Shown: in pieces, positions 1 to 13,198 of the stretch
Position numbering within the stretch: position 1 is the first letter of the stretch
Layout of the letters: the number at the start of each line of letters is the position of its first letter
Assembly: GCA_024279675.1 (NCBI GenBank)
Contig: JAJRRG010000225.1
Coordinates: 1-44,246 of the forward strand
Direction: 5' to 3'
Length of the DNA stretch: 44,246 bases
Source: Alphaproteobacteria bacterium
GTDB taxonomy: Bacteria > Pseudomonadota > Alphaproteobacteria > Rhizobiales > Devosiaceae
Notes under the pieces: model-generated
The model's input: only the letters and a program-made list of their open reading frames with translations
Told to the model about the DNA's origin: nothing
Database searches by the model: none
Translations under genes and position numbers: made by a program

Positions 1-1
1 A

Positions 2-451
2 ATTGCTGGCAAATTTCTAGCGGACTATGGGTTTGAATTAAGCCGTGGCTTTAAGGCGCTCAAAATTTGGATGTCCCTCAAGGAAAATGGTGTTGAGAAA
101 TTTGGTCGCTTGATCGACCAGAATATCGAGCAAGCTAAATATCTAGAACAACTTATTCTGCGCAATTCAAAGTTGCAAATCGTCGCCCCAGTGGGGCTGA
201 ATATTGTGTGCTTTCGATATGCAAATCAGATCACTGATGAAGCGCTCCTGAAAGAAATTAATACGGAAATCATGTTGCGGATTCAGGAGTCCGGGTTCGC
301 AGTTCCCTCTGACACAACGGTTGCTGGAAAGCACTGTCTGCGCGTGGCGATCAACAACCATCGCACGACGCGGCTGGATTTAGATCTTTTCATCGACGAA
401 GTTCTGCGATGTGGTGATGATTTGGTAGCTCAAAACCCAAATGTGTCCTAG
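2..451 (+). CDS. PLP-dependent (group II) amino acid decarboxylase, C-terminal part
   Basis: The window opens inside this gene. The frame is open from base 2, upstream of the ATG at 71 used by the ORF track, and gives about 149 residues to the TAG at 449-451. The piece LSRGFKALKIWMSLKENG matches the conserved segment after the PLP lysine in DOPA/aromatic-L-amino-acid decarboxylases (pfam00282). The later stretch ending in RVAINNHRTTRLDLDLF matches the usual C-terminal strand and helix of that family. The PLP lysine and the other active-site residues lie outside the window, so the substrate cannot be judged. It is not in an operon with the minus-strand transporter genes that follow. The family call is confident; the exact amine product is unknown. 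Confidence 0.85.
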   Translation: MAGKFLADYGFELSRGFKALKIWMSLKENGVEKFGRLIDQNIEQAKYLEQLILRNSKLQIVAPVGLNIVCFRYANQITDEALLKEINTEIMLRIQESGFAVPSDTTVAGKHCLRVAINNHRTTRLDLDLFIDEVLRCGDDLVAQNPNVS

Positions 452-550
452 GTGGACTGCTTCACACCCAATAGGATGTTCTAAAGTGCAGCAAAATGGC
501 TAAGAAATTGGGCGCATGCTATAATTTTGATCTATGCTCAATATTGCCTT

Positions 551-595
551 AAAAAAACCCGCTGCGATCCCGTTATTAAACGAAAATCGCAGCGG
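551..595 (-). terminator. Rho-independent terminator of the CUT1 operon
   Basis: Arms CCGCTGCGAT (559-568) and ATCGCAGCGG (586-595) pair perfectly over 10 bp around a 17-nt loop. Read on the minus strand the stem is followed by GGG and seven T residues (551-557). It sits just past the stop of the last permease gene and has no T-run in the plus direction, so it serves the minus-strand operon. Confidence 0.9.
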
Positions 596-631
596 CTCCA
601 GGAGAAGAGTATATGTTGTAGCCGTCTATGA

Positions 632-1465
632 TTACTTGATGGCACCGGCTGTCATGCCTGCAATAAAGCGTTTCGACTGAACGATGAACACGATTACCAC
701 CGGTAGGGCAGCCAAAGTCAGGCCGGCATAAAGCACGCCAAAGTTGACACTGTATTCCCCAAAGAAAGAAGTTAGACCCTGGGCTAACGTTTTCATTTCC
801 GGTGTTTGGATAAAAATCAGAGGGAAGAAGAAATCGTTCCATATGGGCACAGCGTTATAAATTCCTGCAATCACCATGGCGGGGGTAATAAGCGGCACCA
901 TAATTTCCACCATTATCCGAAATTCAGAAGCGCCATCTACCCTTGCACTATCTTCAAGTTCAGATGGAAGTGCGCGCAAAAATCCAGTTAGAATAAATAC
1001 GGTGGAGGGCAGGCTCATGGCTATGTAAATGAATATCAGGCCGAGCAAATTATCAATCAGCCCCATGAATTTGAGTTGGATAAACAGCGGGATGATGGCA
1101 AGTCGTAGGGGCAACATCAGTCCGGCAAGAAAAAACAGGGAAACCATAATGGAGCCGCGAAACCGATAGCGTGAAATTGCATAGGCGGCCATGGTCCCGG
1201 TCACCAGCAATATGGCAACAGAGGCAAGTGTGACGATGGTTGAGTTTAGTAAAAATCTGGGGACGTCGGTCGTATTCCATATCACCAAATAATTGTCAAA
1301 ATTCAGGCTTTTGGGCAGAGCAAACGGGTTACCAAAGATTTCAGCGTTGGTTTTAAAGCCTGACATTGCCATCATAATGATGGGATACAAAACAACGATT
1401 GTAGTGGCGATCAGGAATATCTGGACAAGCCAAGCTTCGTAGCCGGCGTTTCTTTTGGTTTGCAT
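632..1465 (-). CDS. CUT1 sugar ABC transporter permease (MalG-like)
   Basis: A 277-residue inner-membrane permease, the last gene of the minus-strand sugar-uptake operon. It shows about six hydrophobic segments, the first near residues 12-34. The cytoplasmic EAA loop has the signature EDSARVDGASEFRIMVEIMVP, which docks on the ATPase subunit. Its length and EAA motif match the MalG branch of carbohydrate-uptake (CUT1) permeases. The start is supported by a strong ribosome site, GGAGG five bases before ATG, which overlaps the TAG stop of the upstream permease. Translation of the two permeases is therefore probably coupled. The substrate is not encoded in this subunit; the neighbouring murQ suggests an amino-sugar such as MurNAc or a muropeptide sugar (inference). 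Confidence 0.92.
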   Translation of the reverse strand: MQTKRNAGYEAWLVQIFLIATTIVVLYPIIMMAMSGFKTNAEIFGNPFALPKSLNFDNYLVIWNTTDVPRFLLNSTIVTLASVAILLVTGTMAAYAISRYRFRGSIMVSLFFLAGLMLPLRLAIIPLFIQLKFMGLIDNLLGLIFIYIAMSLPSTVFILTGFLRALPSELEDSARVDGASEFRIMVEIMVPLITPAMVIAGIYNAVPIWNDFFFPLIFIQTPEMKTLAQGLTSFFGEYSVNFGVLYAGLTLAALPVVIVFIVQSKRFIAGMTAGAIK

Positions 1466-1474
1466 CGTTGCCTC

Positions 1475-2428
1475 CTAATTCATTTCAACTTCGCGACTGG
1501 TCAAATATTTTGTCGCGATAATTGAGAATACAAAAATGAAGATGAACATCAGAACAGCAAGGGCTGAACCACTGCCGAAATTGGAACCGCCGGCGCTGAC
1601 CGAACCAAAGGCCGTCCGATAAAACATGAGGCCAAGCATATCAGTGGAGCCCGCAGGAGAGCCTTCCAGCCCATTCATGATGTAGGGAATTTCAAACCAA
1701 TTAAACGATCCGATGAATGTTAACACCGTAATAATCGTGATTGCCGGCGCCATTAGTGGCCATATTATCTCGCGGGCTATTCTCCATTCCGAGGCGCCAT
1801 CAAGGCGCGCCGCTTCGATGAAATCTTTTGGAATTCGATGTATTGCCGCTAAAAATACCAGTGTGGGAAAGCCAAACCAGTGCCAGGAGTTCACCAACAG
1901 CATGGAATTAAGGGCCGTTTCAGGAAGTCCCAGCCATGGCAAAGCCCAATCATGCAGTCCAATATTGTGCAGAAATTTATTCACCAGACCAAAAACAGGA
2001 TTAAGGAATAGCTTCCATTGAAATCCGATGATTACTGTTGATAGAATAACGGGAAGGAAGAATACGACCTGATAAAACCGATACCCTTTTGGATTGCGAG
2101 CCAATAACAGCGCGATTACCAGGGCGATGCCATTTTGAACCAGCATCAACGAAACGAACACTTTTACATTATTCATAAACGCGTTGAATAAAACTTTGTT
2201 TTTCAAGGGGTTGAATAAAATGTCCTGAAAATTTGCCAGGCCGATAAATTCCTTGCGCACCAAACCGTCCCAATCAAATACGCTGTACCAGACGGCGCTT
2301 CCCATCGGAACGAATACAAAAACAATCAAAATGGCGGCGGGTGGAAGAATTAGAAACAACAGCCAAAGTTTTAATTTGAGCGTTCTGTTTCTTTTCGCCT
2401 TCTCATAGTCTGCATTGGTCATCGACAT
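1475..2428 (-). CDS. CUT1 sugar ABC transporter permease (MalF-like)
   Basis: A 317-residue inner-membrane permease, partner of the MalG-like gene 9 bases downstream. About six membrane segments are visible, starting near residue 22. The EAA loop reads IEAARLDGASEWRIAREIIWP. It lacks the large periplasmic insertion of true MalF, as is usual for general CUT1 permeases of about 300 residues. A GGGGG ribosome site lies a few bases before the ATG, and the gap to the preceding ATPase gene is only 12 bases, so the genes are co-transcribed. It should form the heterodimeric channel with the next gene. Confidence 0.92.
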   Translation of the reverse strand: MSMTNADYEKAKRNRTLKLKLWLLFLILPPAAILIVFVFVPMGSAVWYSVFDWDGLVRKEFIGLANFQDILFNPLKNKVLFNAFMNNVKVFVSLMLVQNGIALVIALLLARNPKGYRFYQVVFFLPVILSTVIIGFQWKLFLNPVFGLVNKFLHNIGLHDWALPWLGLPETALNSMLLVNSWHWFGFPTLVFLAAIHRIPKDFIEAARLDGASEWRIAREIIWPLMAPAITIITVLTFIGSFNWFEIPYIMNGLEGSPAGSTDMLGLMFYRTAFGSVSAGGSNFGSGSALAVLMFIFIFVFSIIATKYLTSREVEMN

Positions 2429-2440
2429 AATTGCCCCCTT

Positions 2441-3526
2441 TTAGCGAACGGCATCGCCATGTGGTCCAAATAAGTAAGATTGCTTTAGTGAGAACCCGAT
2501 TTCTACCATGTCGCCGATGGCAATTTTTTGATCCCCGGACATATGGGCCACAACTTCCTTTTGGTCTCCAACATAAAGGTACAGATAGGTTTCACCACCC
2601 AGCCGTTCCACGGCATACACTTCACCAGTAAATGTGCCTTGGTTTGTGTTTCCAATGGTAAAATGCTCCGGGCGAACACCAAAACTTACCTTGTCGCCAG
2701 TGGAAAGATTTGAAGGTTCGTTTAAGGGAAATTTGATTTTCACACTGTCTTTAACGTCGATTTCAACATCAGTGTTGCTCGTGTTTATAACTGTTCCATC
2801 AAAAAAATTCATGGAAGGAGAGCCAATAAACCCCGCAACAAACAAGTTGTCAGGCGCGTTATATAAGTCCAATGGAGCGCCGATTTGCTCGACTTTGCCG
2901 TCCCGCAGCACCACAATTTTATCCGCCATTGTCATGGCCTCGACCTGATCATGGGTCACATAGATCATGGTTGCATTTAGGGAACGGTGCAATTTGGTCA
3001 GTTCGATGCGCATTTGAACCCGTAGTTTTGCATCCAGGTTTGACAGGGGTGCGTCAAACAAAAATACTTTTGGGTCACGCACAATCGCGCGACCAATGGC
3101 GACCCTTTGCCTTTGTCCACCGGACAATGCTTTAGGTTTTCGTTCTAGGTATTCAGTTAGTTGTAAAACGCTGGCCGCATCATTTACCTTTTTGGCAATT
3201 GTTTCTTTGCTTTCCTTGGCCACGCGAAGCGCATAACCCATGTTTTGTCGTACCGTGAAGTGGGGATAAAGCGCATAGGACTGGAAAACCATGGCAACAC
3301 CCCGTTTGGATGGCGCAAGGTGATCAACGCGTTCTTCTTCAATGTGGACTTCGCCCGATGTGAGGTCTTCCAACCCAGCAATCAGTCTCAGGAGTGTGGA
3401 TTTTCCGCAACCCGATGGCCCGACAAAAACGACAAACTCGTTATCTTCAACAGTCAGGTTTACATCTTTGATGACTTTCACTTCACCAAACTGTTTGTTT
3501 ACTGAGCGCAATACGACATTGGCCAT
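2441..3526 (-). CDS. CUT1 ABC transporter ATP-binding protein (UgpC/MsmK/MalK type) with atypical Walker B
   Basis: A 361-residue cytoplasmic ATPase for the adjacent sugar permeases. Walker A is GPSGCGKST (residues 36-44), the signature is LSGGQRQ (about 134-140), the D-loop is SNLDAKLR, and the switch histidine is in YVTHDQVEAM. A C-terminal TOBE-type domain follows residue 240. The length is normal for the family. The oddity is in Walker B: the motif reads VFLFDAP instead of VFLFDEP, so residue 159 is Ala (codon GCA, bases 3050-3052). This is the position of E159 in E. coli MalK, the catalytic base, and one base change from GAA would produce it. Every other ABC ATPase in this window keeps the glutamate. 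It lies between the binding-protein gene and the permeases, with a hairpin upstream. Confidence 0.93.
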   Translation of the reverse strand: MANVVLRSVNKQFGEVKVIKDVNLTVEDNEFVVFVGPSGCGKSTLLRLIAGLEDLTSGEVHIEEERVDHLAPSKRGVAMVFQSYALYPHFTVRQNMGYALRVAKESKETIAKKVNDAASVLQLTEYLERKPKALSGGQRQRVAIGRAIVRDPKVFLFDAPLSNLDAKLRVQMRIELTKLHRSLNATMIYVTHDQVEAMTMADKIVVLRDGKVEQIGAPLDLYNAPDNLFVAGFIGSPSMNFFDGTVINTSNTDVEIDVKDSVKIKFPLNEPSNLSTGDKVSFGVRPEHFTIGNTNQGTFTGEVYAVERLGGETYLYLYVGDQKEVVAHMSGDQKIAIGDMVEIGFSLKQSYLFGPHGDAVR

Positions 3527-3586
3527 AATTTTCCAACTTTTGTTAGAGTTATCTTGTTCGTGCGAACCGGTCCGGCTCTATGCGAT

Positions 3587-3618
3587 TAAATAAAACCCGA
3601 GGCGCAGGACGCCTCGGG
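3587..3618 (-). terminator. Intercistronic hairpin after the binding-protein gene
   Basis: CCCGAGGCG (3596-3604) and CGCCTCGGG (3610-3618) form a perfect 9-bp stem with a 5-nt loop. On the minus strand it is followed by TTTTATTTA. It lies between the binding-protein stop and the ATPase start, so it is best read as a partial terminator or an mRNA 3' stabiliser that raises binding-protein levels over the other subunits. Confidence 0.8.
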
Positions 3619-3635
3619 ACTTGTTGTGGATTTAA

Positions 3636-4850
3636 TTATTCAGCGGTTTTGATGCCGTTGCTAACATCCGCTGCAACTTCAGCTGCGGTTTTGGCACCTG
3701 TCATCAACTCTTGCAGACCCGATTGAAGAAGGGTCGAGCCTGTTGGTGTATCGAAACGGAAGGCAACCAACATGATGTATGGTGTCGCGGCAGAATGGAA
3801 ACTTGACACTCTGGACAAGGTTGCATCTGAAGACATGGCACCATCAACGGCGGCAACATTGTTCAACTCATCCGTCAACATCTGAGCAAACGGTGTTGTT
3901 GCTGTGAAACGGATGAACTCTAGCGCATCTTCTTTGTTTTCGGAGGCAGCATTGACGCCATATCCGCCATCAAGCCAAGTTGCAACCATGCGTTCGCCAC
4001 CAGCTTCAGCAGCGGGGCCAGGCATAATTTCAAAGTTAATGCCGGCATCTCTGAAACCGTTGATTTCCCATGAACCGCCAATAAACATCGCGGCGGCACC
4101 AGAGGTAAATAGCGCTTTCATCGTGGCATAGTCGACGCCTTCAAATCCTGTAGGCATAAATTCAGCCAGTTCGGACATTTTTTCAAGGGCACCAACATAG
4201 CGTGCATCCTCAAAATCGGTTGCACCGGATGTAACTTCCCCAAAGAACCCACTGCCATAGAAATTTGGCATAATAGCACCGGACATAATTTCAACAGTCC
4301 AGCCATCGGCAGTTCCGTTGGCAAGTGGTGTAATGCCCGCAGCTTTAAGTGCAGTGGAGGCGGCTTTAAATTCCTCAAAGGTTTCAGGTACTGTGATGTT
4401 GTTCGCGTCAAAAATATCTTTGTTGTAATAAACAACGACAGTTTGTGATGCGAATGGAACAGCATAGATGCGGCCATCTGCGCGAAGCGTTGTCCCTAAT
4501 AGTTCGTCGGCGCTTAGCAATGACAGGTCAACTTGGCCATCAAGGGCTTCAAGATACCCAGCCCCCGAAATGGCTTCCAAACTTCCATATGCACGTGTGT
4601 GGATAATGTCAGGGCCTGAACCACCAGCAAGAGCCGTTGTTAGAATGGTATTGTAGGCTTTTGCTTCGTGGGCCGTGTAGGTAATTTTAATGTCGGGGTG
4701 CGTTGCTTCAAAAGCGGCTATAATTTTTTCATAGGCCGCAATATCTTCCTGACGCCAACTCCAAAAATTCAATTCACTGGCTGCGAGCGTTGATACGCTT
4801 GCTGACAAAGCAGCGGCGACTAAAAGCGCCCTTGTTGTAAATTTTCTCAT
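3636..4850 (-). CDS. CUT1 extracellular sugar-binding protein
   Basis: A 404-residue periplasmic solute-binding protein and first gene of the transporter operon. The N-terminus MRKFTTRALLVAAALSA followed by STLAA is a Sec signal peptide with cleavage expected near residue 23. Mature protein starts with ELNFWSWRQED, typical of family 1 binding proteins. The segment GGSGPDIIHTRAYGSLEAI matches the conserved GPD block. A GGGAGAG ribosome site precedes the ATG. The gene has its own promoter at 4938-4966, overlapped by a pseudo-palindrome also found at murQ, and it is flanked upstream by the RpiR regulator gene. The ligand cannot be read from sequence; a MurNAc-type or other amino-sugar ligand is inferred from context only. 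Confidence 0.93.
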   Translation of the reverse strand: MRKFTTRALLVAAALSASVSTLAASELNFWSWRQEDIAAYEKIIAAFEATHPDIKITYTAHEAKAYNTILTTALAGGSGPDIIHTRAYGSLEAISGAGYLEALDGQVDLSLLSADELLGTTLRADGRIYAVPFASQTVVVYYNKDIFDANNITVPETFEEFKAASTALKAAGITPLANGTADGWTVEIMSGAIMPNFYGSGFFGEVTSGATDFEDARYVGALEKMSELAEFMPTGFEGVDYATMKALFTSGAAAMFIGGSWEINGFRDAGINFEIMPGPAAEAGGERMVATWLDGGYGVNAASENKEDALEFIRFTATTPFAQMLTDELNNVAAVDGAMSSDATLSRVSSFHSAATPYIMLVAFRFDTPTGSTLLQSGLQELMTGAKTAAEVAADVSNGIKTAE

Positions 4851-4935
4851 TTGTTTCTCTCCCGTTTAAGATATCAATGGTCCCGAAATTTCAACGGATG
4901 AGATCTCCCTCACACATCAAACTCCAAAACTAGTT

Positions 4936-4950
4936 GGAATTTAATATTCG
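4936..4950 (-). promoter_or_regulatory. Candidate RpiR operator over the -10 box of the binding-protein promoter
   Basis: Read on the minus strand the site is CGAATATTAAATTCC. It is a pseudo-palindrome and matches 12 of 15 bases of the site at the murQ promoter (GGAATATATAATTCC). Both overlap a -10 box and both flank the RpiR gene. The assignment to RpiR is inference from position and similarity. Confidence 0.6.
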
Positions 4951-4966
4951 TAAACGTATCTGTCAA
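4938..4966 (-). promoter_or_regulatory. Sigma-70-type promoter of the CUT1 operon
   Basis: On the minus strand TTGACA (4961-4966) is separated by 17 bases from TAAATT (4938-4943). The predicted start lies about 80 bases upstream of the binding-protein ATG. The -10 region is inside the candidate operator, the usual arrangement for repression. A second similar site lies just upstream of the -35 box at 4969-4983. Confidence 0.65.
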
Positions 4967-4968
4967 TC

Positions 4969-4983
4969 ATTTTTTATTATTCA
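4969..4983 (-). promoter_or_regulatory. Distal candidate RpiR half-site upstream of the CUT1 operon promoter
   Basis: The minus strand reads TGAATAATAAAAAAT. The core GAATAATAAA is identical to the core of the distal site in front of murQ. Centre-to-centre distance to the proximal site is 33 bases (32 at murQ), about three helical turns, so two dimers could bind the same face of the DNA. Confidence 0.45.
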
Positions 4984-5023
4984 CGGGGCAGGGCGACATT
5001 GGTTTGGGACCTTAAATTGGCAA

Positions 5024-5869
5024 TTATCGAATTTTTCTCACCAGTTCCTGGCTGGTGGAAATACGTTCGGCGGCATCATCGCGCCTCTGTACCAACAAAA
5101 CAAACAATAGGTCTGTTATGGCGAACTGGGCCGTTCTAGTTGCAATGGACGAGCTTCTAACGACGCTTTCATCCGCGGCACAATGCAGCAACACATCAGG
5201 TGGATTGTCCCCATAAAACCCGCCAACGAATACGACGGGAATATTATTCTCCTTGGCAAAGTCAACCGCAACACTAATTTCCCGGGTCTTTCCGGAATAG
5301 GATATTGCTACAAGTAAATCATCGGGGCGAAAACTTGCAAGATTTGCCAGTTGAATATGACTATCACCCGAACTAATCACGGATTTTCCAAATTTTGTCA
5401 GTTTCAATGTCATATCTTGTGCAACAAGGGCCGATCCGCCGATGCCCATGATGAGGATACGATCTGACTTTTCAATCAATCTGACAGCCTCGTCCAACTT
5501 CTCGTTAGAGTTCATTTTCATCGTTTCGGACATTGCCGACACTTTGCTGTTGAAAAGTTTTTTTGCCACCGACCCTAGGGAATCATCGCTAAAAATCCCC
5601 GCATGGATTTGTTGAGCGTTTTCGCTTCGCGCCATTTCCGCGCTTAGAGTGATTTTAAGGGCAGGGAAACCGCGAAATCCAATTTTTTGACAAAACTTAA
5701 TGATGCTGGATTGGCTCACATTGCATTTTTGCGCGAGCGTTTGCGATGACATCTCTGTAATTTCCTGGGGCGAAAGAATTATAGTTTCGGCTATGGAGCG
5801 CTCGATTTTTGACATCCGCTCAAGATCAGAGCTTAGGCGGGAAATTAGGCTGATTTTAGAATTTTTCAT
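5024..5869 (-). CDS. MurR/RpiR-family transcriptional regulator (HTH plus SIS domain)
   Basis: A 281-residue cytoplasmic regulator. Residues 1-80 form the RpiR helix-turn-helix region (LAQKCNVSQSSIIKFCQKIGF followed by PALKITLSAE). Residues about 125-260 form a sugar-isomerase (SIS) domain with the phosphosugar loop ILIMGIGGSALVAQD and a second loop LVAISYSGKTREI. Members of this family bind sugar phosphates and usually repress the genes next to them. It lies between the transporter operon (same strand) and murQ (divergent), the standard position for a regulator of both. Because MurQ acts on MurNAc-6-phosphate, that compound is the most likely effector (inference). A candidate operator at 5921-5935 could also mediate autoregulation. 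Its own promoter is not clear. Confidence 0.92.
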   Translation of the reverse strand: MKNSKISLISRLSSDLERMSKIERSIAETIILSPQEITEMSSQTLAQKCNVSQSSIIKFCQKIGFRGFPALKITLSAEMARSENAQQIHAGIFSDDSLGSVAKKLFNSKVSAMSETMKMNSNEKLDEAVRLIEKSDRILIMGIGGSALVAQDMTLKLTKFGKSVISSGDSHIQLANLASFRPDDLLVAISYSGKTREISVAVDFAKENNIPVVFVGGFYGDNPPDVLLHCAADESVVRSSSIATRTAQFAITDLLFVLLVQRRDDAAERISTSQELVRKIR

Positions 5870-5920
5870 ATGTTCTTCTGTCTGTTAGAGGCAGAGGCTA
5901 ACATTATTTTGGCACCAAAA

Positions 5921-5935
5921 CGAATAATAAATTAT
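5921..5935 (+). promoter_or_regulatory. Distal candidate RpiR site upstream of murQ
   Basis: CGAATAATAAATTAT matches 12 of 15 bases of the site at the CUT1 promoter (CGAATATTAAATTCC). Its GAATAATAAA core recurs exactly at 4969-4983 on the other strand. It abuts the murQ -35 box and lies between rpiR and murQ, so it could act on both divergent genes. Confidence 0.5.
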
Positions 5936-5964
5936 TGACGGGGCGTGGTTTTGGAATATATAAT
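5935..5964 (+). promoter_or_regulatory. Strong sigma-70-type promoter of murQ
   Basis: TTGACG (5935-5940), an 18-base spacer and a perfect TATAAT (5959-5964). The expected transcription start, about seven bases after the -10 box, falls on the A of the murQ ATG at 5971. The ORF-track start at 5935 is actually this -35 hexamer read as a TTG codon. Confidence 0.8.
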
Positions 5965-5967
5965 TCC
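5953..5967 (+). promoter_or_regulatory. Candidate RpiR operator over the murQ -10 box
   Basis: GGAATATATAATTCC has perfect 5-bp arms (GGAAT/ATTCC) around ATATA and covers the -10 box. The matching site at 4936-4950 covers the -10 box of the transporter operon. Bound repressor would block RNA polymerase at both promoters. Confidence 0.65.
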
Positions 5968-5970
5968 AAT

Positions 5971-6924
5971 ATGATGATTGAAATTAAAAATGAATTGGTT
6001 GCGCTTTCTACCTCCCTAGAGGGGTTGAATTCTGAAAAAACCAACATTCTATCGAGCGAGCTGGACAAACTATCCGCCTTAGAAATTGCGCAGTTGATGA
6101 ATGCTGAGGATGCAAAAGTGTCGCTTGCCGTCTCAAAAACGCTGGGCCCAATCAGCCAAGCGATCGAAGCTGCCGCGCGGGCATTGAGGGTTGGTGGCAG
6201 AGTTATCTACATTGGTGCTGGCACAAGTGGGCGCTTGGGAATTTTGGATGCGTCTGAAATTCCTCCAACTTTTTCGGCCCCCCATGATTTATTTGTTGCC
6301 CTCATCGCCGGGGGTAGGGATGCAATGTTTCGGTCCAAGGAAGGCGCTGAAGACGATGCATTGCAGGGCGTGGCCGATTTACGTGAAATAGGCTTAAGCA
6401 AAGAGGATTTTGTTGTTGGCCTTGCGGTATCGGGACGCACACCATACGTCTTGGGCGCAATTAAATATGCTCTAGACCTCGGTGTCGTTACAGCAGGGGT
6501 TTCTTGCAATGGGGGGAGCGAACTCGATCGAATTTCCGACATCGCCATTACCCCAATCGTTGGCCCTGAAATACTCACCGGGTCAACCCGGTTGAAATCC
6601 GGCACTGCACAAAAGCAAGTTCTCAATATGATCTCGACGGGCGCGATGGTTCAAATTGGCAAGTGCTTTGGAAACAGAATGGTCGATATGAACGCTTCAA
6701 ATGAAAAATTGAAAGCGCGCGCAATTAACTTGGTTACAGATTTGACTTCTTCAACAAAAGAAGCGGCGTTAGATGCGCTGACTTATGCAAATTGGGATAT
6801 TAAATCTGCCATTTTGATGGAAAAAACCGGTATGAATGCTAAAGACGCGACCAAAATGATAAAAGAGCAAAATGGACATCTTCGCCATGCTATTGCAGCG
6901 TTTGAATCCGAGAGTAATTTGTAA
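5971..6924 (+). CDS. murQ: N-acetylmuramic acid 6-phosphate etherase
   Basis: MurQ cleaves the lactyl ether of MurNAc-6-phosphate to give GlcNAc-6-phosphate and D-lactate, a cytoplasmic step of peptidoglycan-sugar recycling. From the ATG at 5971 the protein has 317 residues, against about 300 in E. coli. The SIS-type active site is intact: GAGTSGRLGILDASEIPPTF (about 82-101) carries the glutamate that acts as catalytic acid/base, and KEGAEDD (about 123-129) carries the second conserved glutamate. The C-terminal helical region ends with QNGHLRHAIAAFE, as in the family. The upstream TTG start is rejected because it is the -35 box. The promoter places the transcript start at the ATG and there is no Shine-Dalgarno, so the mRNA is probably leaderless. 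No kinase that would make MurNAc-6-phosphate lies nearby. Confidence 0.93.
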   Translation: MMIEIKNELVALSTSLEGLNSEKTNILSSELDKLSALEIAQLMNAEDAKVSLAVSKTLGPISQAIEAAARALRVGGRVIYIGAGTSGRLGILDASEIPPTFSAPHDLFVALIAGGRDAMFRSKEGAEDDALQGVADLREIGLSKEDFVVGLAVSGRTPYVLGAIKYALDLGVVTAGVSCNGGSELDRISDIAITPIVGPEILTGSTRLKSGTAQKQVLNMISTGAMVQIGKCFGNRMVDMNASNEKLKARAINLVTDLTSSTKEAALDALTYANWDIKSAILMEKTGMNAKDATKMIKEQNGHLRHAIAAFESESNL

Positions 6925-6960
6925 AGTTGGGCATGTCACGGTTTAGTTCCACTTCTTTAA

Positions 6961-7122
6961 GCGCCTATTGTATCGAGTGCAGACCAAGGGCTTAAAGAAC
7001 TTGAGCGGAATGTTGGATACAGGCGTGTCGGGCGTATAATGCGTCAGAACGATATATCGGTTATTCACGGAGATGATCGATATTTGACTTTACCCATTGC
7101 TGGCGCTCCTATGCTGGGGTAA
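6961..7122 (+). pseudogene. IS3-family transposase (OrfB) fragment
   Basis: A 53-codon open stretch with no start codon. The segment LKELERNVGYRRVGRIMRQ followed by NDISVI resembles the HTH-like region in the N-terminal half of IS3-family OrfB transposases (typical form: ELGLNVGHRRVGRLMRENGI). The remainder after about codon 37 does not resemble transposase, and neither OrfA nor the DDE catalytic core is present. No clear terminal inverted repeats or target duplication were found. It is a deeply decayed remnant; the match is from memory of the family and could be confirmed by blastx. Confidence 0.55.
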
Positions 7123-7230
7123 CAGCCACAGTGCTGATATTTAGCGATAATCGTTTAGAAGATGTGCGTGGCTAAGATACTGGAAAACCGCTGTTTTCCG
7201 TAGTGTTGACAAGAAGCGCCTAGATAATTA

Positions 7231-7281
7231 CGGATGACTATAATCCGCGTGTTGGGGGCTCAAGCCCCTATCCCGCTACCA
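7231..7281 (+). pseudogene. tRNA-Met(CAT)-like 3' half, degenerate
   Basis: The bases CGGATGACTATAATCCG form a 5-bp anticodon-type stem with an altered loop. They are followed by a T-arm-like stem GGGG, loop GCTCAAG, stem CCCC, and then TCCCGCTACCA. The last part is what I recall for alphaproteobacterial elongator tRNA-Met (ending CCCGCTACCA with encoded CCA). No D-arm or 5' acceptor strand (AGCGGGA or GGCGGGG type) exists upstream, and position 33 is not T, so it cannot be a working tRNA. tRNA 3' ends left behind like this are typical of integration or deletion scars. Confidence 0.55.
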
Positions 7282-7323
7282 AATATTTTGTGTGTTTTTT
7301 GAACAAAATTTGATGGGTGAACG

Positions 7324-8292
7324 ATGCGTATTTTAATGACAGGGGCAAGCGGTTTTGTTGGCATCGGCCTTGGTGATGTTTTGGCACATGCGGGTCAAGA
7401 TGTTGTTGGCGTCAGCCGCACTGTGCCAAAATATTTGCCCACGAATTGCATTCACTTCCAAGTTGACATTCAAGCGAAGACGGATTGGTCTGAGCACTTG
7501 AGCGGTGTTGAAACGGTTGTTCATATGGCCGATGGGTTTAATGCCTTTGAGCATATTTCAGACCCAGGGAATTTTGCTGATCTTACCAATGAAACGCCGG
7601 ACATTTCTAAGGCCCGAGAGCGGTTGGCGGCCACGCTTAATCTAGCTAAGCAGGCCCTTGAAAACGGGGTGAAGCATTTTGGTTATCTTAGTTCAATCAA
7701 GGCCATGTGCGGCACTTGGTCGCCAGAAGTTCTGGATGAAAACTCCGTTCCCAAACCTGACAGTCTGTACGGACGACTTAAACTAGAAGCTGAACAGGCA
7801 TTGTTTCGCATGGTTGAGGGGCGGGAAATGAATGTTACAGCCCTTAGATTCCCCATTGTGTTTGGAGCTAAGGCTGATGGGAATTTTATGCGTTTACTCA
7901 GGTTTGCTGATAACGTTTGGCCGTTGCCATTTACAGGGATAAACGCCAAGCGTTCCATGATTTCGCAAACTTCGTTGATCGATGCTATTTCCCGCGTGGT
8001 CGAAACGCCCACTGGGTCATCGGGGCATTATTTGGTGCACGAGGGGGCCATGAGCTTACCTGAAATTCTAACGAATATGCGTATAGGGTTGGGCCGTCCT
8101 ACCCGGATTTTTTCCGCTCCCAGACTGATACTTGAACTGATGATTCAGATACCAAAAGTCGGCGCATCGGCATCACGAATTCTTCGGCCTCTGGAACTTG
8201 AGGACAACAAGTTTCGCCAAGAATTTTCATGGGTACCACCGGTGCAAATGGAAAAGGAAATGCAAAAAATTGCGGCTGCTTACAAAGGCTGA
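7324..8292 (+). CDS. NAD-dependent epimerase/dehydratase (extended SDR)
   Basis: A 322-residue cytoplasmic nucleotide-sugar-type enzyme. It starts with the Rossmann motif MRILMTGASGFVGIGLGD and has the catalytic Tyr-x-x-x-Lys as SLYGRLKLEAEQ (about residues 155-166), preceded by the SSIKAM serine strand. The family includes UDP-glucose/GlcNAc 4-epimerases, dehydratases and reductases acting on sugar nucleotides. It lies 69 bases before a polysaccharide-export ABC pair on the same strand, so it probably makes or modifies a sugar of the exported glycan (inference). A GGGTGAACG ribosome-site-like sequence precedes the ATG. The exact substrate is undetermined. Confidence 0.85.
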   Translation: MRILMTGASGFVGIGLGDVLAHAGQDVVGVSRTVPKYLPTNCIHFQVDIQAKTDWSEHLSGVETVVHMADGFNAFEHISDPGNFADLTNETPDISKARERLAATLNLAKQALENGVKHFGYLSSIKAMCGTWSPEVLDENSVPKPDSLYGRLKLEAEQALFRMVEGREMNVTALRFPIVFGAKADGNFMRLLRFADNVWPLPFTGINAKRSMISQTSLIDAISRVVETPTGSSGHYLVHEGAMSLPEILTNMRIGLGRPTRIFSAPRLILELMIQIPKVGASASRILRPLELEDNKFRQEFSWVPPVQMEKEMQKIAAAYKG

Positions 8293-8361
8293 GCTGGGTT
8301 GCAAATTGTGAGGTAATTTGACTGGTTTACTCAACAAGCTAACAGGTTGTATAGGTGAGCC

Positions 8362-9147
8362 ATGAGAGAAGAACTTGGAGAAATATTTAACGGCATTCGC
8401 CAGTTTGAACTTTGGTCAACTTTTGCATGGAATGACATAAAGGCCCGCTATGCCCGCTCAATATTAGGTCCCATATGGATGGTGTTGTCCATGGGTTTCA
8501 TGGTGGCGTCCCTTGGTTTGGTCTATGGCGCGATTTTTGGCGTGGAGCTGTCCTCTTACTTTCCATATTTAACGATGGGATTTATCTCATGGGGGCTTAT
8601 TTCAAGTTTTTTTCTTGAGGGCAGCAATATATTTGTTGAAGTTGCGAGCTTGATTAAGCAGATCAAAATTCCCCTTAGTGTGCATGTGGCGCGCATGAGC
8701 ATGCGTGTGATGGTGGTGTTTTTCCACAACATGCTGATTTTTGTTTTTGTGGCGGTTTATTTTTCGCACAATCCGGGGGTTAACGCCTTTTTGTTGATAC
8801 CGGCTTTATTTCTAAGCGTCTTAAATGGCACCTGGATTATTATGTTATTGGGCGGTTTGTCTGTTCGATTTAGGGATTTGCCCTATGCAATTGCCTCAAT
8901 TTTGCAGTTGGCGTTTTTTCTAACACCCATCATCTGGCAACCCAGCATGCTGAGTGGACGCGGACGGTTTTTCCTAACGGACGCTAATCCGTTGTATCAT
9001 GCGGTGGAAATAATCAGATCGCCGATGCTTGGGCAGGCGCCAGCGATGCTCTCTTGGTATGTGATGGGTAGTGCGGCAGTTGTTGGTTGGTTTGTGACAC
9101 TGTTATTCTTGAAATATTGGCGCAAACAAATACCGTTTTGGGTTTAA
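8362..9147 (+). CDS. Polysaccharide export ABC transporter permease (ABC-2, Wzm/KpsM/RfbA type)
   Basis: A 261-residue inner-membrane protein with about six hydrophobic segments. The N-terminal amphipathic part LWSTFAWNDIKARYARSILGP followed by WMV is characteristic of Wzm-type permeases, as is the segment RFRDLPYAIASILQL followed by FFLTPIIW near residues 173-195. With the ATPase encoded 24 bases downstream it should export a lipid-linked O-antigen, capsule or related glycan from cytoplasm to periplasm. No glycosyltransferases are in the window, so the glycan cannot be named. The next gene completes the transporter. Confidence 0.9.
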   Translation: MREELGEIFNGIRQFELWSTFAWNDIKARYARSILGPIWMVLSMGFMVASLGLVYGAIFGVELSSYFPYLTMGFISWGLISSFFLEGSNIFVEVASLIKQIKIPLSVHVARMSMRVMVVFFHNMLIFVFVAVYFSHNPGVNAFLLIPALFLSVLNGTWIIMLLGGLSVRFRDLPYAIASILQLAFFLTPIIWQPSMLSGRGRFFLTDANPLYHAVEIIRSPMLGQAPAMLSWYVMGSAAVVGWFVTLLFLKYWRKQIPFWV

Positions 9148-9171
9148 GCCTCAACTTTTAGGATACACGAA

Positions 9172-9915
9172 ATGGTTCATGTAATTGCGAAAAATATTTC
9201 CCTTGATTACCGGATTTACGGGAATGGGGCGCGCTCGTTACGCCGGGCAATTGTGAATATTGGAAGCGCCGGCAAGATTGCCCGTGACGCCAAAGACGTT
9301 GTCAAAATCAGGGCGCTAAATAGCATCTCCTTTGAAGCGCATGAGGGGGACCGGGTTGCGATAATTGGAAGTAATGGGGCGGGGAAATCGACCCTGCTTC
9401 GTGTAATATCCTCCATCTATGGAGTAAGTGAGGGCAGCCTTTCCATTGATGGGCATTTGGTGCCTTTGCTTGATGTATCTTTGGGTATTCAAGAGGAGGA
9501 AAGTGGGCGTAAGAATATATATTATCGCGGGCTTATGCTTGGCATTTCGCGCAAGGAAATTGAGGCAAATGTGGATGAAATTATCGCGTTTACCGAACTT
9601 GGTGACTATATTGATTTGCCGGTGAATACTTATTCTTCGGGGATGAAAGTGCGGTTGGCTTTCGCTATTTCAACGGTTATACGACCTGAAATTTTACTCA
9701 TGGATGAATGGATTGGGGCGGGGGATGCCAAATTTATTGCCAAGGCTGAGGCCCGTGTAAATGGAATGGTTGATTCTGCAAAAATACTGTTCCTTGCTTC
9801 CCACTCAATGGCCTTGGTACAAAATATTTGCAACAAGGCCATGGTGTTAAGTCAGGGAGAAATGATTTATTGGGGCGATGTTGAGGGTGCTATTGCGGCC
9901 TATGAGGCGCTCTAG
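9172..9915 (+). CDS. Polysaccharide export ABC transporter ATP-binding protein (Wzt/KpsT type)
   Basis: A 247-residue cytoplasmic ATPase. Walker A is GSNGAGKST (residues 66-74), signature YSSGMKVRLAFAIS, Walker B ILLMDEWIGAGDAKF with the catalytic Glu present. The DEW-x-GAGD form is specific to polysaccharide exporters. It has no C-terminal carbohydrate-binding extension, so it belongs to the short KpsT/RfbE-like class and not to the O9a-type Wzt. It follows its permease gene closely. Its TAG stop shares the tetranucleotide CTAG with the stop codon of the convergent glpD gene, and no terminator is visible between them. Confidence 0.92.
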   Translation: MVHVIAKNISLDYRIYGNGARSLRRAIVNIGSAGKIARDAKDVVKIRALNSISFEAHEGDRVAIIGSNGAGKSTLLRVISSIYGVSEGSLSIDGHLVPLLDVSLGIQEEESGRKNIYYRGLMLGISRKEIEANVDEIIAFTELGDYIDLPVNTYSSGMKVRLAFAISTVIRPEILLMDEWIGAGDAKFIAKAEARVNGMVDSAKILFLASHSMALVQNICNKAMVLSQGEMIYWGDVEGAIAAYEAL

Positions 9916-11447
9916 GTTCGTGAATTCTTGCTAATCCCTATTCCTTTTTTAATCAAATATCCATCAAGGATTTTGACTTCATTTGCGGATAATCTTAAGC
10001 CCATTTTTGTGCGTCTCCATAAAATGTCTTCGGTGGTCATGGCCCACTCATTTTTAATGAGATGAGTTACTTCAAACTCATAAAAATTTTCACCAAATTG
10101 TTGTCCCAGATCGGCTTCCGATTTGGCTTTCCCCAACATCTGTGTGGCGATGGTACCATAAAGCCGCACCAGTCGGCGCGCGTGGATGGGGTTTAAAAAA
10201 GAGTATTTTTTCTTTAGTTTTTCGACTTCTTGTTCAAATTTTGTTTTGGGAAAATCGCCGCCGGGCAGGGGTGCTGTTGCTGTCCAGGAGCCCCCACGTG
10301 GCTCGTAAATTTCTTCGATGGTTTTAAGGACGGATTCAGATAGTTTGCGATAGGTTGTGAGCTTGCCCCCATAGACGCTGATAAGGGAAGCGCCGGCATT
10401 TTTTTGTACACTTAGTACATATTCGCGGGTGGCTTCCTGAGCTTCGCTTGTGCCATCATCCATTAGGGGACGTACAGCGGAATAAGCCCAAATGACCTGT
10501 TCGGGGACAATGGGAGTGGCGAAATATTCACTCGCCGCATCACATAAATATGACGTTTCAACATCAGAAATTTTGACTGCGCTGGGGTCACCATCATAAT
10601 CTTGATCGGTGGTGCCAATAAGGGTGTAATCCTCCTCATAGGGAATGGCAAAAATTATGCGGTTGTCAGCATTTTGGAATATGTAGCATTTGTCATGGTC
10701 AAAGATTTTTTTGACCACAATATGGGAACCTTGTACCAGCCGAATACGTTTGCCGTCGTCTTCTTTGACTGCGTCGGCTAAAACCTTGTCGACCCAAGGG
10801 CCTGCGACATTGACCAGTACTTTTGTCAGGATTTCCCGGGTCTCACCGTTGCTTGTTTGCACTGTTATGTTCCACACTTCTGCGCCGTTTAATTGGATGC
10901 GTCTGGCGGCAACCACTTTAGTTCTTGAAAGGATGGTAGCGCCACGATTGGCCGCATCGCGGGCATTGAGTACCACCATGCGCGCATCATTGACCCAAGC
11001 ATCAGAATATTCAAAGGCGCGGGTATAAAGAGGTTTAAGTGGATCGGCGACCTCATCGGTTTGCATGTTTAGGGTTTTGGTGGCGGGAAGAAGTTTACGT
11101 CCCCCCAAATAGTCATAAAGAAATAAGCCCAAGCGCAAAAACCAGGCGGGGCGTAACCCTTTGTGAATTGGTAGAACAAAGCGCAACGGCCAAATGATAT
11201 GGGGGGCGATTTCCCAAAGACGTTCCCGTTCCATAAGCGCCTCGCGCACCAGACGAAATTCGTAATGCTCCAAGTAACGTAAACCGCCATGAATAAGCTT
11301 GGTTGCCCCCGATGAAGTGCCGCTGGCAAAATCATTCATTTCAGCGAGGCAAACGGAATATCCTCTGCCCACCGCGTCGCGCGCAATGCCGCAGCCATTT
11401 ATGCCGCCGCCAATGACAAATACATCAAAGGGCTTATCGTTATCCAT
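9912..11447 (-). CDS. glpD: Aerobic glycerol-3-phosphate dehydrogenase (FAD)
   Basis: GlpD oxidises sn-glycerol-3-phosphate to DHAP at the inner face of the cytoplasmic membrane and passes electrons to quinone. The protein has 511 residues, the usual length. The FAD Rossmann motif is DVFVIGGGINGCGIARDA (about 8-25), followed by the family block SGTSSGATKLIHGGLRYLE. Later blocks include RLVQGSHIVV, AIPYEEDYTLIGTTD and the C-terminal GGKLTTYRKL. It stands alone: glpF, glpK and glpR are not in the window. The start ATG is preceded by a weak AAGG site. It ends convergently against the export ATPase with overlapping stop codons. Confidence 0.95.
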   Translation of the reverse strand: MDNDKPFDVFVIGGGINGCGIARDAVGRGYSVCLAEMNDFASGTSSGATKLIHGGLRYLEHYEFRLVREALMERERLWEIAPHIIWPLRFVLPIHKGLRPAWFLRLGLFLYDYLGGRKLLPATKTLNMQTDEVADPLKPLYTRAFEYSDAWVNDARMVVLNARDAANRGATILSRTKVVAARRIQLNGAEVWNITVQTSNGETREILTKVLVNVAGPWVDKVLADAVKEDDGKRIRLVQGSHIVVKKIFDHDKCYIFQNADNRIIFAIPYEEDYTLIGTTDQDYDGDPSAVKISDVETSYLCDAASEYFATPIVPEQVIWAYSAVRPLMDDGTSEAQEATREYVLSVQKNAGASLISVYGGKLTTYRKLSESVLKTIEEIYEPRGGSWTATAPLPGGDFPKTKFEQEVEKLKKKYSFLNPIHARRLVRLYGTIATQMLGKAKSEADLGQQFGENFYEFEVTHLIKNEWAMTTEDILWRRTKMGLRLSANEVKILDGYLIKKGIGISKNSRT

Positions 11448-11628
11448 TTGGTTGAACCTTTTTTAACTAGAAAATATCGCTGTCGGTAATTTAGCATGCC
11501 TAGAGCGTGAGGGATGATCAAAATATAGGGAATTTGTTTTTAAAGTACGAAAATTAGCTTGTTGGTCAATGGGGTTAGCAAGGAATTCCTTAGATTTTGC
11601 AACAAGTTTTTATATCCAATTTTTTATA

Positions 11629-12753
11629 TCATAGTACTTTTTCATAAATGCGGTGGGTTTTATAGCGTTTGCCCCCCATTAGTTTTGCTGCCCGGTTCAT
11701 CATTGTGTTGCTTTCAAGGATTTGACTCATTTCTGCTGTTTGGTAGCCCTTTTCTAGCGCTGCGCGATATTGATGATGATAAAGTACAACATCGATACCT
11801 CGCCCGCGATATTGCTCAAGCACGCCCATTATCATGACGCGAATTGAGCGAATGGCACCGGGGCGCGAGTGCCATAATAGTTTTAATAGTCCAAAGGGAA
11901 ACAAACGGCCGTTGCGGATTTTAATGATAGCTTCATTCAGGTTTGGCACGGCGATTGTAAATCCAACGAGTTCACCCTGCGCGTTTTCAGCCAAATACAG
12001 CAGATCAAAATCGGCGATAGGCTCTAGATTTTTAACAAGGTGGGCAAATTCTTTTTTCGAGGCAGGAAGCCAAAACCAGTTTTTCTTCCAGGCTTTGTTA
12101 TACACGTCCCAAATTTTCAAGGCATCTTCTTGCAGAGTTTTTTTGCTCATTTTTCGGATGGTTATGTCAAGCCGCCTCTCTATTTGTGGTGCGGTGGTGA
12201 GCAGTCTTTTGCTCATTTGACCGGCATCGAGCATATAGCAATATAGATCCATGCATTTGCCATATCCCGCGCCGGTGACCAAAGCACCGTAATAGGAAGG
12301 ATTGCCCGGAATCATAATGAAATTGGGTGTGTCGAATGCGTCGATCTGTAGACCAATTTCTTCATTTACCGAGTGATTAAAGGGCCCGCGCACAATGTTA
12401 TGGCCCCATGAATGGGCAGTCTTTTCCACTTGACAAAATAGGGCGTTTGCCGTGTCCTTGTCGTCAATGCACTCAAAAAAACCAAAATGCGTTGTGGTTT
12501 CATGGTGGATTTTATTATGTTTGGCGTCGTTTATGGCCGCTATGCGCCCGACAGGACGTCCCTCTGAATAGGCGACAAAAAGCTTTATTTGTCCGTGCTC
12601 GAAAAACGGGTGCTTTTTGGAATCTAGCATTTCTTTTTGCTGAATTCGTAAAGGGGGCGCCCAAAATGAGTTGTTAGCCTGCACTGAATAGGGAATATCT
12701 ATGAAATCTGAGAATTGTTTCCCTTTGTCTGCGGCCAGAATCTCAAGTGCCAT
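11629..12753 (-). CDS. GNAT-superfamily acetyltransferase-like protein (about 375 residues)
   Basis: A 374-residue soluble protein. The C-terminal third has the acetyl-CoA-binding signature of GNAT enzymes, MGVLEQYRGRGIDVVLYHHQ, followed by NRAAKLMGGKRYKTHRIYEK. An N-terminal half with PYSVQANNSFWAPPL and an N-x-E/G-rich central part (GPFNHSVNEEIGLQIDAF) is typical of a widespread bacterial family of this length with no assigned substrate. I place the start at 12753 (MALEIL), because GAGGG lies five bases before it, while the ATG at 12765 in the ORF track has its GGG too close. A single-gene unit between glpD and a cytochrome cluster. Function unknown beyond likely acyl transfer. Confidence 0.8.
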   Translation of the reverse strand: MALEILAADKGKQFSDFIDIPYSVQANNSFWAPPLRIQQKEMLDSKKHPFFEHGQIKLFVAYSEGRPVGRIAAINDAKHNKIHHETTTHFGFFECIDDKDTANALFCQVEKTAHSWGHNIVRGPFNHSVNEEIGLQIDAFDTPNFIMIPGNPSYYGALVTGAGYGKCMDLYCYMLDAGQMSKRLLTTAPQIERRLDITIRKMSKKTLQEDALKIWDVYNKAWKKNWFWLPASKKEFAHLVKNLEPIADFDLLYLAENAQGELVGFTIAVPNLNEAIIKIRNGRLFPFGLLKLLWHSRPGAIRSIRVMIMGVLEQYRGRGIDVVLYHHQYRAALEKGYQTAEMSQILESNTMMNRAAKLMGGKRYKTHRIYEKVL

Positions 12754-12859
12754 GATGTCCCTCATTCCCTTTTGAGTTATGATATTAGGGGAGTTGTTGG
12801 GATTGTCGAGGGGGCGATTTAGGGGAATATGGTCAGTTTGTGCTCGTTACCATATGCAA

Positions 12860-13198
12860 TTATTGCCAAGTACAATTATCGAAACTGGAATAGTCAGTCA
12901 GGATATGCATTTGGCCGGATTTTGCCAGTCGTGTGCATCCTTCCATGGCTAACGGGCTTTCAAAGACAGCGACTGTTCCGGGGTGGCCCGTTTCTGTGCC
13001 TTGGAGGCATAATCTTTCGTCAGTTTTTAGGACGCCAGTGGTGCGCGACACATTATTCAGGCGGAGCACAAAAAACAATTCCACATCGCTCTGGTTGTGA
13101 ACACAAAGCGATGTGGATGATATTTCATCAGACGCGTGCGCGGACAGGCTAAGACAAACCATCCACATGAAACCTAATAATAGGCGCACGGAACCCAA
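12860..13198 (-). CDS. Small secreted cysteine-containing protein, unknown
   Basis: A 112-residue protein I do not recognise. Residues 1-22 (MGSVRLLLGFMWMVCLSLSAHA) are a Sec signal peptide. The mature part of about 90 residues has four cysteines, in the contexts SLCVHN, RLCLQG, EGCTRL and DNCTW, which could form two disulfides in the periplasm. It starts six bases after the stop of the cytochrome c gene on the same strand, so it is co-transcribed and probably translationally linked. The N-terminal part (CVHNQSDVELFFVLRLN) looks like beta strands. A structural or assembly role near the cytochrome is possible but unproven. Confidence 0.75.
   Translation of the reverse strand: MGSVRLLLGFMWMVCLSLSAHASDEISSTSLCVHNQSDVELFFVLRLNNVSRTTGVLKTDERLCLQGTETGHPGTVAVFESPLAMEGCTRLAKSGQMHILTDYSSFDNCTWQ

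What the first reader, a model, noticed from the sequence alone, without database searches (positions are those of the whole stretch)
7231..7281. Half a tRNA: degraded elongator tRNA-Met 3' end
A 51-base piece has the anticodon-type stem CGGAT/ATCCG, a T-arm-like hairpin and an acceptor end TCCCGCTACCA, but the 5' half is absent and the anticodon loop is altered. tRNA 3' ends are the usual attachment sites of integrative elements, so this could be a vestigial att site. It lies 42 bases before an unrelated gene start.
Basis: partly seen in the sequence, partly recalled or inferred. Interest (0 to 1): 0.5.

Follow-up and report, generated by a model that had tools for sequence, protein, structure and literature searches.

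The report
Decayed island attachment site from tRNA-Met
A 42-base leftover of the methionine tRNA gene marks where a mobile DNA element once inserted in this bacterium; such scars are common and well understood, and this one is old and decayed.

Summary
Window 7240-7281 (not 7231) is the 3' part of an elongator tRNA-Met(CAT) gene, from inside the anticodon loop to CCA, identical at 38 of 42 positions to the intact gene of relatives. The bases upstream are not tRNA-derived. In nine relatives of the same family a 3' half of the same kind (starting at tRNA position 28-33, ending at CCA) lies 8-89 kb downstream of the intact tRNA-Met on the same strand. In the five inspected, tyrosine-integrase genes lie between, and three carry two successive halves. 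So the family uses tRNA-Met as an integration hot spot with crossover in the anticodon loop, and the window holds a displaced, decayed attR-type fragment. The intact gene is missing from this draft assembly: its usual upstream neighbour (yfbK-like) is cut by a contig end, so the tRNA probably sits in a gap. No partner site and no integrase occur in the window, so the element itself cannot be shown. The phenomenon is textbook (Islander: 3760 of 3919 islands have a 3' tDNA fragment).

The parts
7240..7281 (+). displaced 3' part of elongator tRNA-Met(CAT), from the second anticodon base to CCA; decayed att (attR-type) core
   Evidence: 38/42 identical to intact tRNA-Met of relatives; no 5' half; two of the four substitutions hit T-loop and T-stem positions
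7231..7239 (+). junction bases of the former element side; resemble the 5' strand of the anticodon stem only by chance or by integrase core-site symmetry
   Evidence: no similarity to tRNA 5' half beyond shuffles; in relatives this side differs from element to element
6925..7230 (.). intergenic stretch on the expected element side; no integrase remnant recognised
   Evidence: tblastn of reading frames at about 30 integrase loci of own genome and relatives: nothing better than E 0.029
5935..6924 (+). SIS-domain gene (GKRP/MurQ-like), end of a sugar-ABC-transporter/RpiR gene cluster (632-6924), expected element side
   Evidence: Pfam; the same cluster lies away from a tRNA in G004 and G022
7324..8292 (+). 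NAD-dependent epimerase gene starting 42 bases after CCA; expected chromosome side (or next island)
   Evidence: Pfam; best matches in congeners only 24-37% identity

Best explanation
Window 7240-7281 is the displaced 3' fragment (attR side) left when a tyrosine-integrase element inserted by crossover in the anticodon loop of the elongator tRNA-Met gene. The element restored the tRNA with its own copy of the 3' half, so the original 3' half was pushed to the far end, freed from selection, and has since changed at four positions. It most likely has no function now. The element should lie, or have lain, on the left (5') side; the right side is the former downstream flank or a further island. Shown: the identity of the fragment, its truncation point, and the same arrangement in relatives. 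Inferred: the integration event in this genome and the left-hand position of the element.
For: 38/42 match to tRNA-Met(CAT) of relatives, starting in the anticodon loop. In 91 family genomes at least 14 other 3'-half copies in 12 genomes start at positions 28-33 and end at CCA; in nine genomes where both lie on one contig, all 11 copies are on the same strand and downstream of the intact gene, 8-89 kb away. Integrase genes lie within these stretches in G005, G011, G022, G028 and G033, and the three scanned have Phage_integrase domains. G011 has a second, also decayed, half copy. The yfbK-like gene that precedes tRNA-Met in G001, G004 and G005 is cut by the end of contig C45 in this genome, which explains the missing intact gene.
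Against: No integrase or integrase remnant near 7231 and no second att copy in the window. The intact gene was not found in the assembly. The flanking genes are not those flanking tRNA-Met in congeners, so the site may have been rearranged, or an element may have carried the half tRNA to another place.
Confidence: 0.88

Rival explanations
1. The half tRNA was brought as the attP end of an element that inserted at a secondary, non-tRNA site, or was moved by later rearrangement; it never marked the tRNA-Met locus at this place.
For: Flanking genes differ from those at tRNA-Met in congeners, and the left gene cluster sits away from any tRNA in G004 and G022.
Against: Downstream flanks of tRNA-Met differ between congeners too (G004 versus G005), as expected of a hot spot; no integrase nearby.
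Confidence: 0.1
2. An ordinary tRNA-Met pseudogene: a full duplicate copy that decayed by mutation, without any mobile element.
For: Four substitutions; no integrase in the window.
Against: The match stops abruptly in the anticodon loop while the 3' part is 90% conserved and the 5' part is at chance; the same break point recurs in relatives.
Confidence: 0.02
3. A functional half tRNA: one piece of a split or trans-spliced tRNA-Met, or a tRNA-like 3' element in the mRNA of the upstream gene.
For: The intact elongator tRNA-Met is missing from the assembly.
Against: No separate 5' half was found in the genome; T-arm positions are mutated; the missing intact gene is explained by the contig break at C45; relatives have intact genes.
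Confidence: 0.005

Closest known systems
tDNA fragment at the distal end of a tRNA-borne genomic island (Islander database, PMC4383910; anticodon-loop sub-site A)
   Same: 3' fragment from anticodon loop to CCA; tyrosine-integrase islands at the same tRNA in relatives, with correct orientation and distance; tandem arrays
   Different: In the window the fragment has diverged at 4 of 42 positions, and neither integrase nor intact tRNA is visible on the contig
tRNA-Met(CAT) prophage integration sites of Paracoccus (PMC6536676)
   Same: tRNA-Met(CAT) is the most used tRNA target there (10 prophages), also in Alphaproteobacteria
   Different: Those are prophages with identified ends; the exact crossover point was not compared here
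tRNA gene fragments in prokaryote annotation (PMC9897764)
   Same: Partial tRNA copies produced by mobile-element integration
   Different: Here too short and decayed to be called by ARAGORN or Rfam

Membership tests
displaced tDNA fragment (attR) of a tRNA-integrated island | identity to the 3' end of a tRNA gene, starting at a known crossover sub-site | tested here: met
   positions 36-77, 38/42; break in the anticodon loop
displaced tDNA fragment (attR) of a tRNA-integrated island | intact tRNA on the same strand, on the 5' side | tested here: inconclusive
   met in nine relatives; own intact gene probably lies in an assembly gap
displaced tDNA fragment (attR) of a tRNA-integrated island | integrase gene between tRNA and fragment | tested here: inconclusive
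   met in G005, G011, G022, G028, G033; none in the 7.2 kb available in the window
functional tRNA gene | complete cloverleaf | tested here: not met
   no ARAGORN or Rfam match

The most novel reading that the evidence does not exclude
The genome really lacks an intact elongator tRNA-Met and uses a split or otherwise unusual one, of which this is the 3' piece.
Probability: 0.005. Interest if true: 0.85.

Novelty: new member of a known kind. Interest (0 to 1): 0.12.

Why it matters
It is a good example of a decayed island boundary that standard tRNA finders miss, and it shows elongator tRNA-Met as a recurrent integration hot spot, with crossover in the anticodon loop, across this bacterial family. 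It has no wider novelty.

Tried and rejected
Two-piece (alpha) tmRNA: rejected, because the genome has its own on contig C130 and nothing matches here. Comparison with the genome's own tRNAs gave only chance-level scores, because the elongator Met gene is not assembled. The weak own-genome match G000:C227:68-87 is a 21-base match next to a tRNA-Leu-like sequence, taken as chance. The Rfam CRISPR-DR64, HOTAIR and isrF matches are far below threshold and spurious. Second att copy in the window: none. A genome-contig search with the epimerase protein found no relative.

Full report
Observation. Bases 7240-7281 on the + strand read ATAATCCGCGTGTTGGGGGCTCAAGCCCCTATCCCGCTACCA. No tRNA, tmRNA or Rfam family is called in the window, nor in the piece searched alone. 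Against the genome's own assembled tRNAs the similarity is only at about chance level. Against the relatives it is unmistakable: one search finds the same 42 bases, at up to 91% identity, in most of 100 related genomes, and ARAGORN of the 19 relative loci fetched complete tRNA-Met(CAT) genes. The consensus gene is GGCGGGGTAGCTCAGCTGGTTAGAGCAGCGGAATCATAATCCGCGTGTCGGGGGTTCAAGTCCCTCTCCCGCTACCA. Judged by its sequence (own knowledge) it is the elongator type; the initiator (L020) and an Ile-type CAT gene (L016) of this genome are different.

Where the similarity ends. It begins at the second anticodon base (position 36) and runs to CCA with four substitutions and no gaps. The 40 bases upstream align to the tRNA 5' half no better than shuffled sequence, p=0.80. 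The 3' strand is tRNA; the 5' strand is foreign, with a spacing two bases longer. It may be chance or the core-site symmetry of an integrase; this was not tested.

Why it is an att site. In 91 genomes of the family, at least 14 other half copies occur in 12 genomes, all starting at tRNA position 28-33 and ending at position 77 (the printed list is cut, so this is a lower bound). In the nine genomes where a half and the intact gene share a contig, every half (11 of 11) lies on the same strand downstream of the intact gene: 7.8 kb (G005), 11.7 (G035), 15.5 and 24.8 (G028), 20 (G048), 22.8 (G033), 33 (G011), 42 (G101), 54.5 (G016), 77.6 and 89.3 (G022). Integrase genes lie inside these stretches in G005, G011, G022, G028 and G033; in G005 the integrase reading frame begins about 60 bases from the half copy. 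G022, G028 and G011 have two successive half copies, that is, tandem islands; one of G011's is itself decayed (GTGAAACTATTTCTGCGAGTCGGGG...). Upstream of the shared core the sequences differ between elements, as expected.

Mechanism. From established knowledge of tRNA-targeting tyrosine integrases (Islander, PMC4383910: 3760 of 3919 islands have a 3' tDNA fragment, and the anticodon loop is one of the recognised crossover sub-sites), the element supplies a new 3' half to the tRNA, and the original 3' half is displaced to the far end, where it is no longer under selection. That fits the four substitutions here, which include a T-loop and a T-stem position. The element side is the left of the window. 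The 306 intergenic bases to the left show no integrase remnant, and the next genes are a sugar ABC transporter/RpiR/MurQ-like cluster that in G004 and G022 lies away from any tRNA.

The missing intact gene. One search finds no complete elongator tRNA-Met in this 282-contig draft. In G001, G004 and G005 the gene just upstream of tRNA-Met is a yfbK-like vWF-domain protein. In this genome only its N-terminal part is present, at the very end of contig C45. In G001 the contig ends one base after the tRNA's CCA. The intact gene thus most likely falls in an assembly gap, and a biological absence need not be invoked.

Limits. Neither partner site nor integrase is on this contig. The right-flank genes have no partner at tRNA-Met in congeners, but congeners also differ from one another there. 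The element that used this site cannot be named.

Literature. tRNA-Met(CAT) is the commonest tRNA target of Paracoccus prophages (PMC6536676), and tRNA fragments from integration are a recognised annotation problem (PMC9897764).

Noticed in passing
window 1-13000 versus 14000-44246: G+C steps from about 0.46 to about 0.50 near 13-14 kb; the low-G+C stretch spans both sides of the half tRNA, which might mean tandem islands, but no second att copy was found at the step.
   Followed up: partly
G022:C44:50419-139873 (L138, L139): Intact tRNA-Met followed by two half copies 78 and 89 kb downstream, with integrase genes near them: a tandem island array of up to 89 kb.
   Followed up: partly
G011:C1:199901-199934 (L096): A second decayed tRNA-Met 3' half, altered in the anticodon stem, between two islands; a parallel to the window's copy.
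   Followed up: partly
G000 contigs C200, C47, C90: Contigs end inside tRNA genes (Lys-CTT, Arg-ACG, Trp) that also occur elsewhere in the assembly: either assembly overlaps or further tRNA-borne repeats.
   Followed up: no
window 632-6924: Sugar ABC transporter, RpiR regulator and MurQ/GKRP-like SIS protein cluster conserved (55-88% identity) at other loci in G004 and G022.
   Followed up: partly
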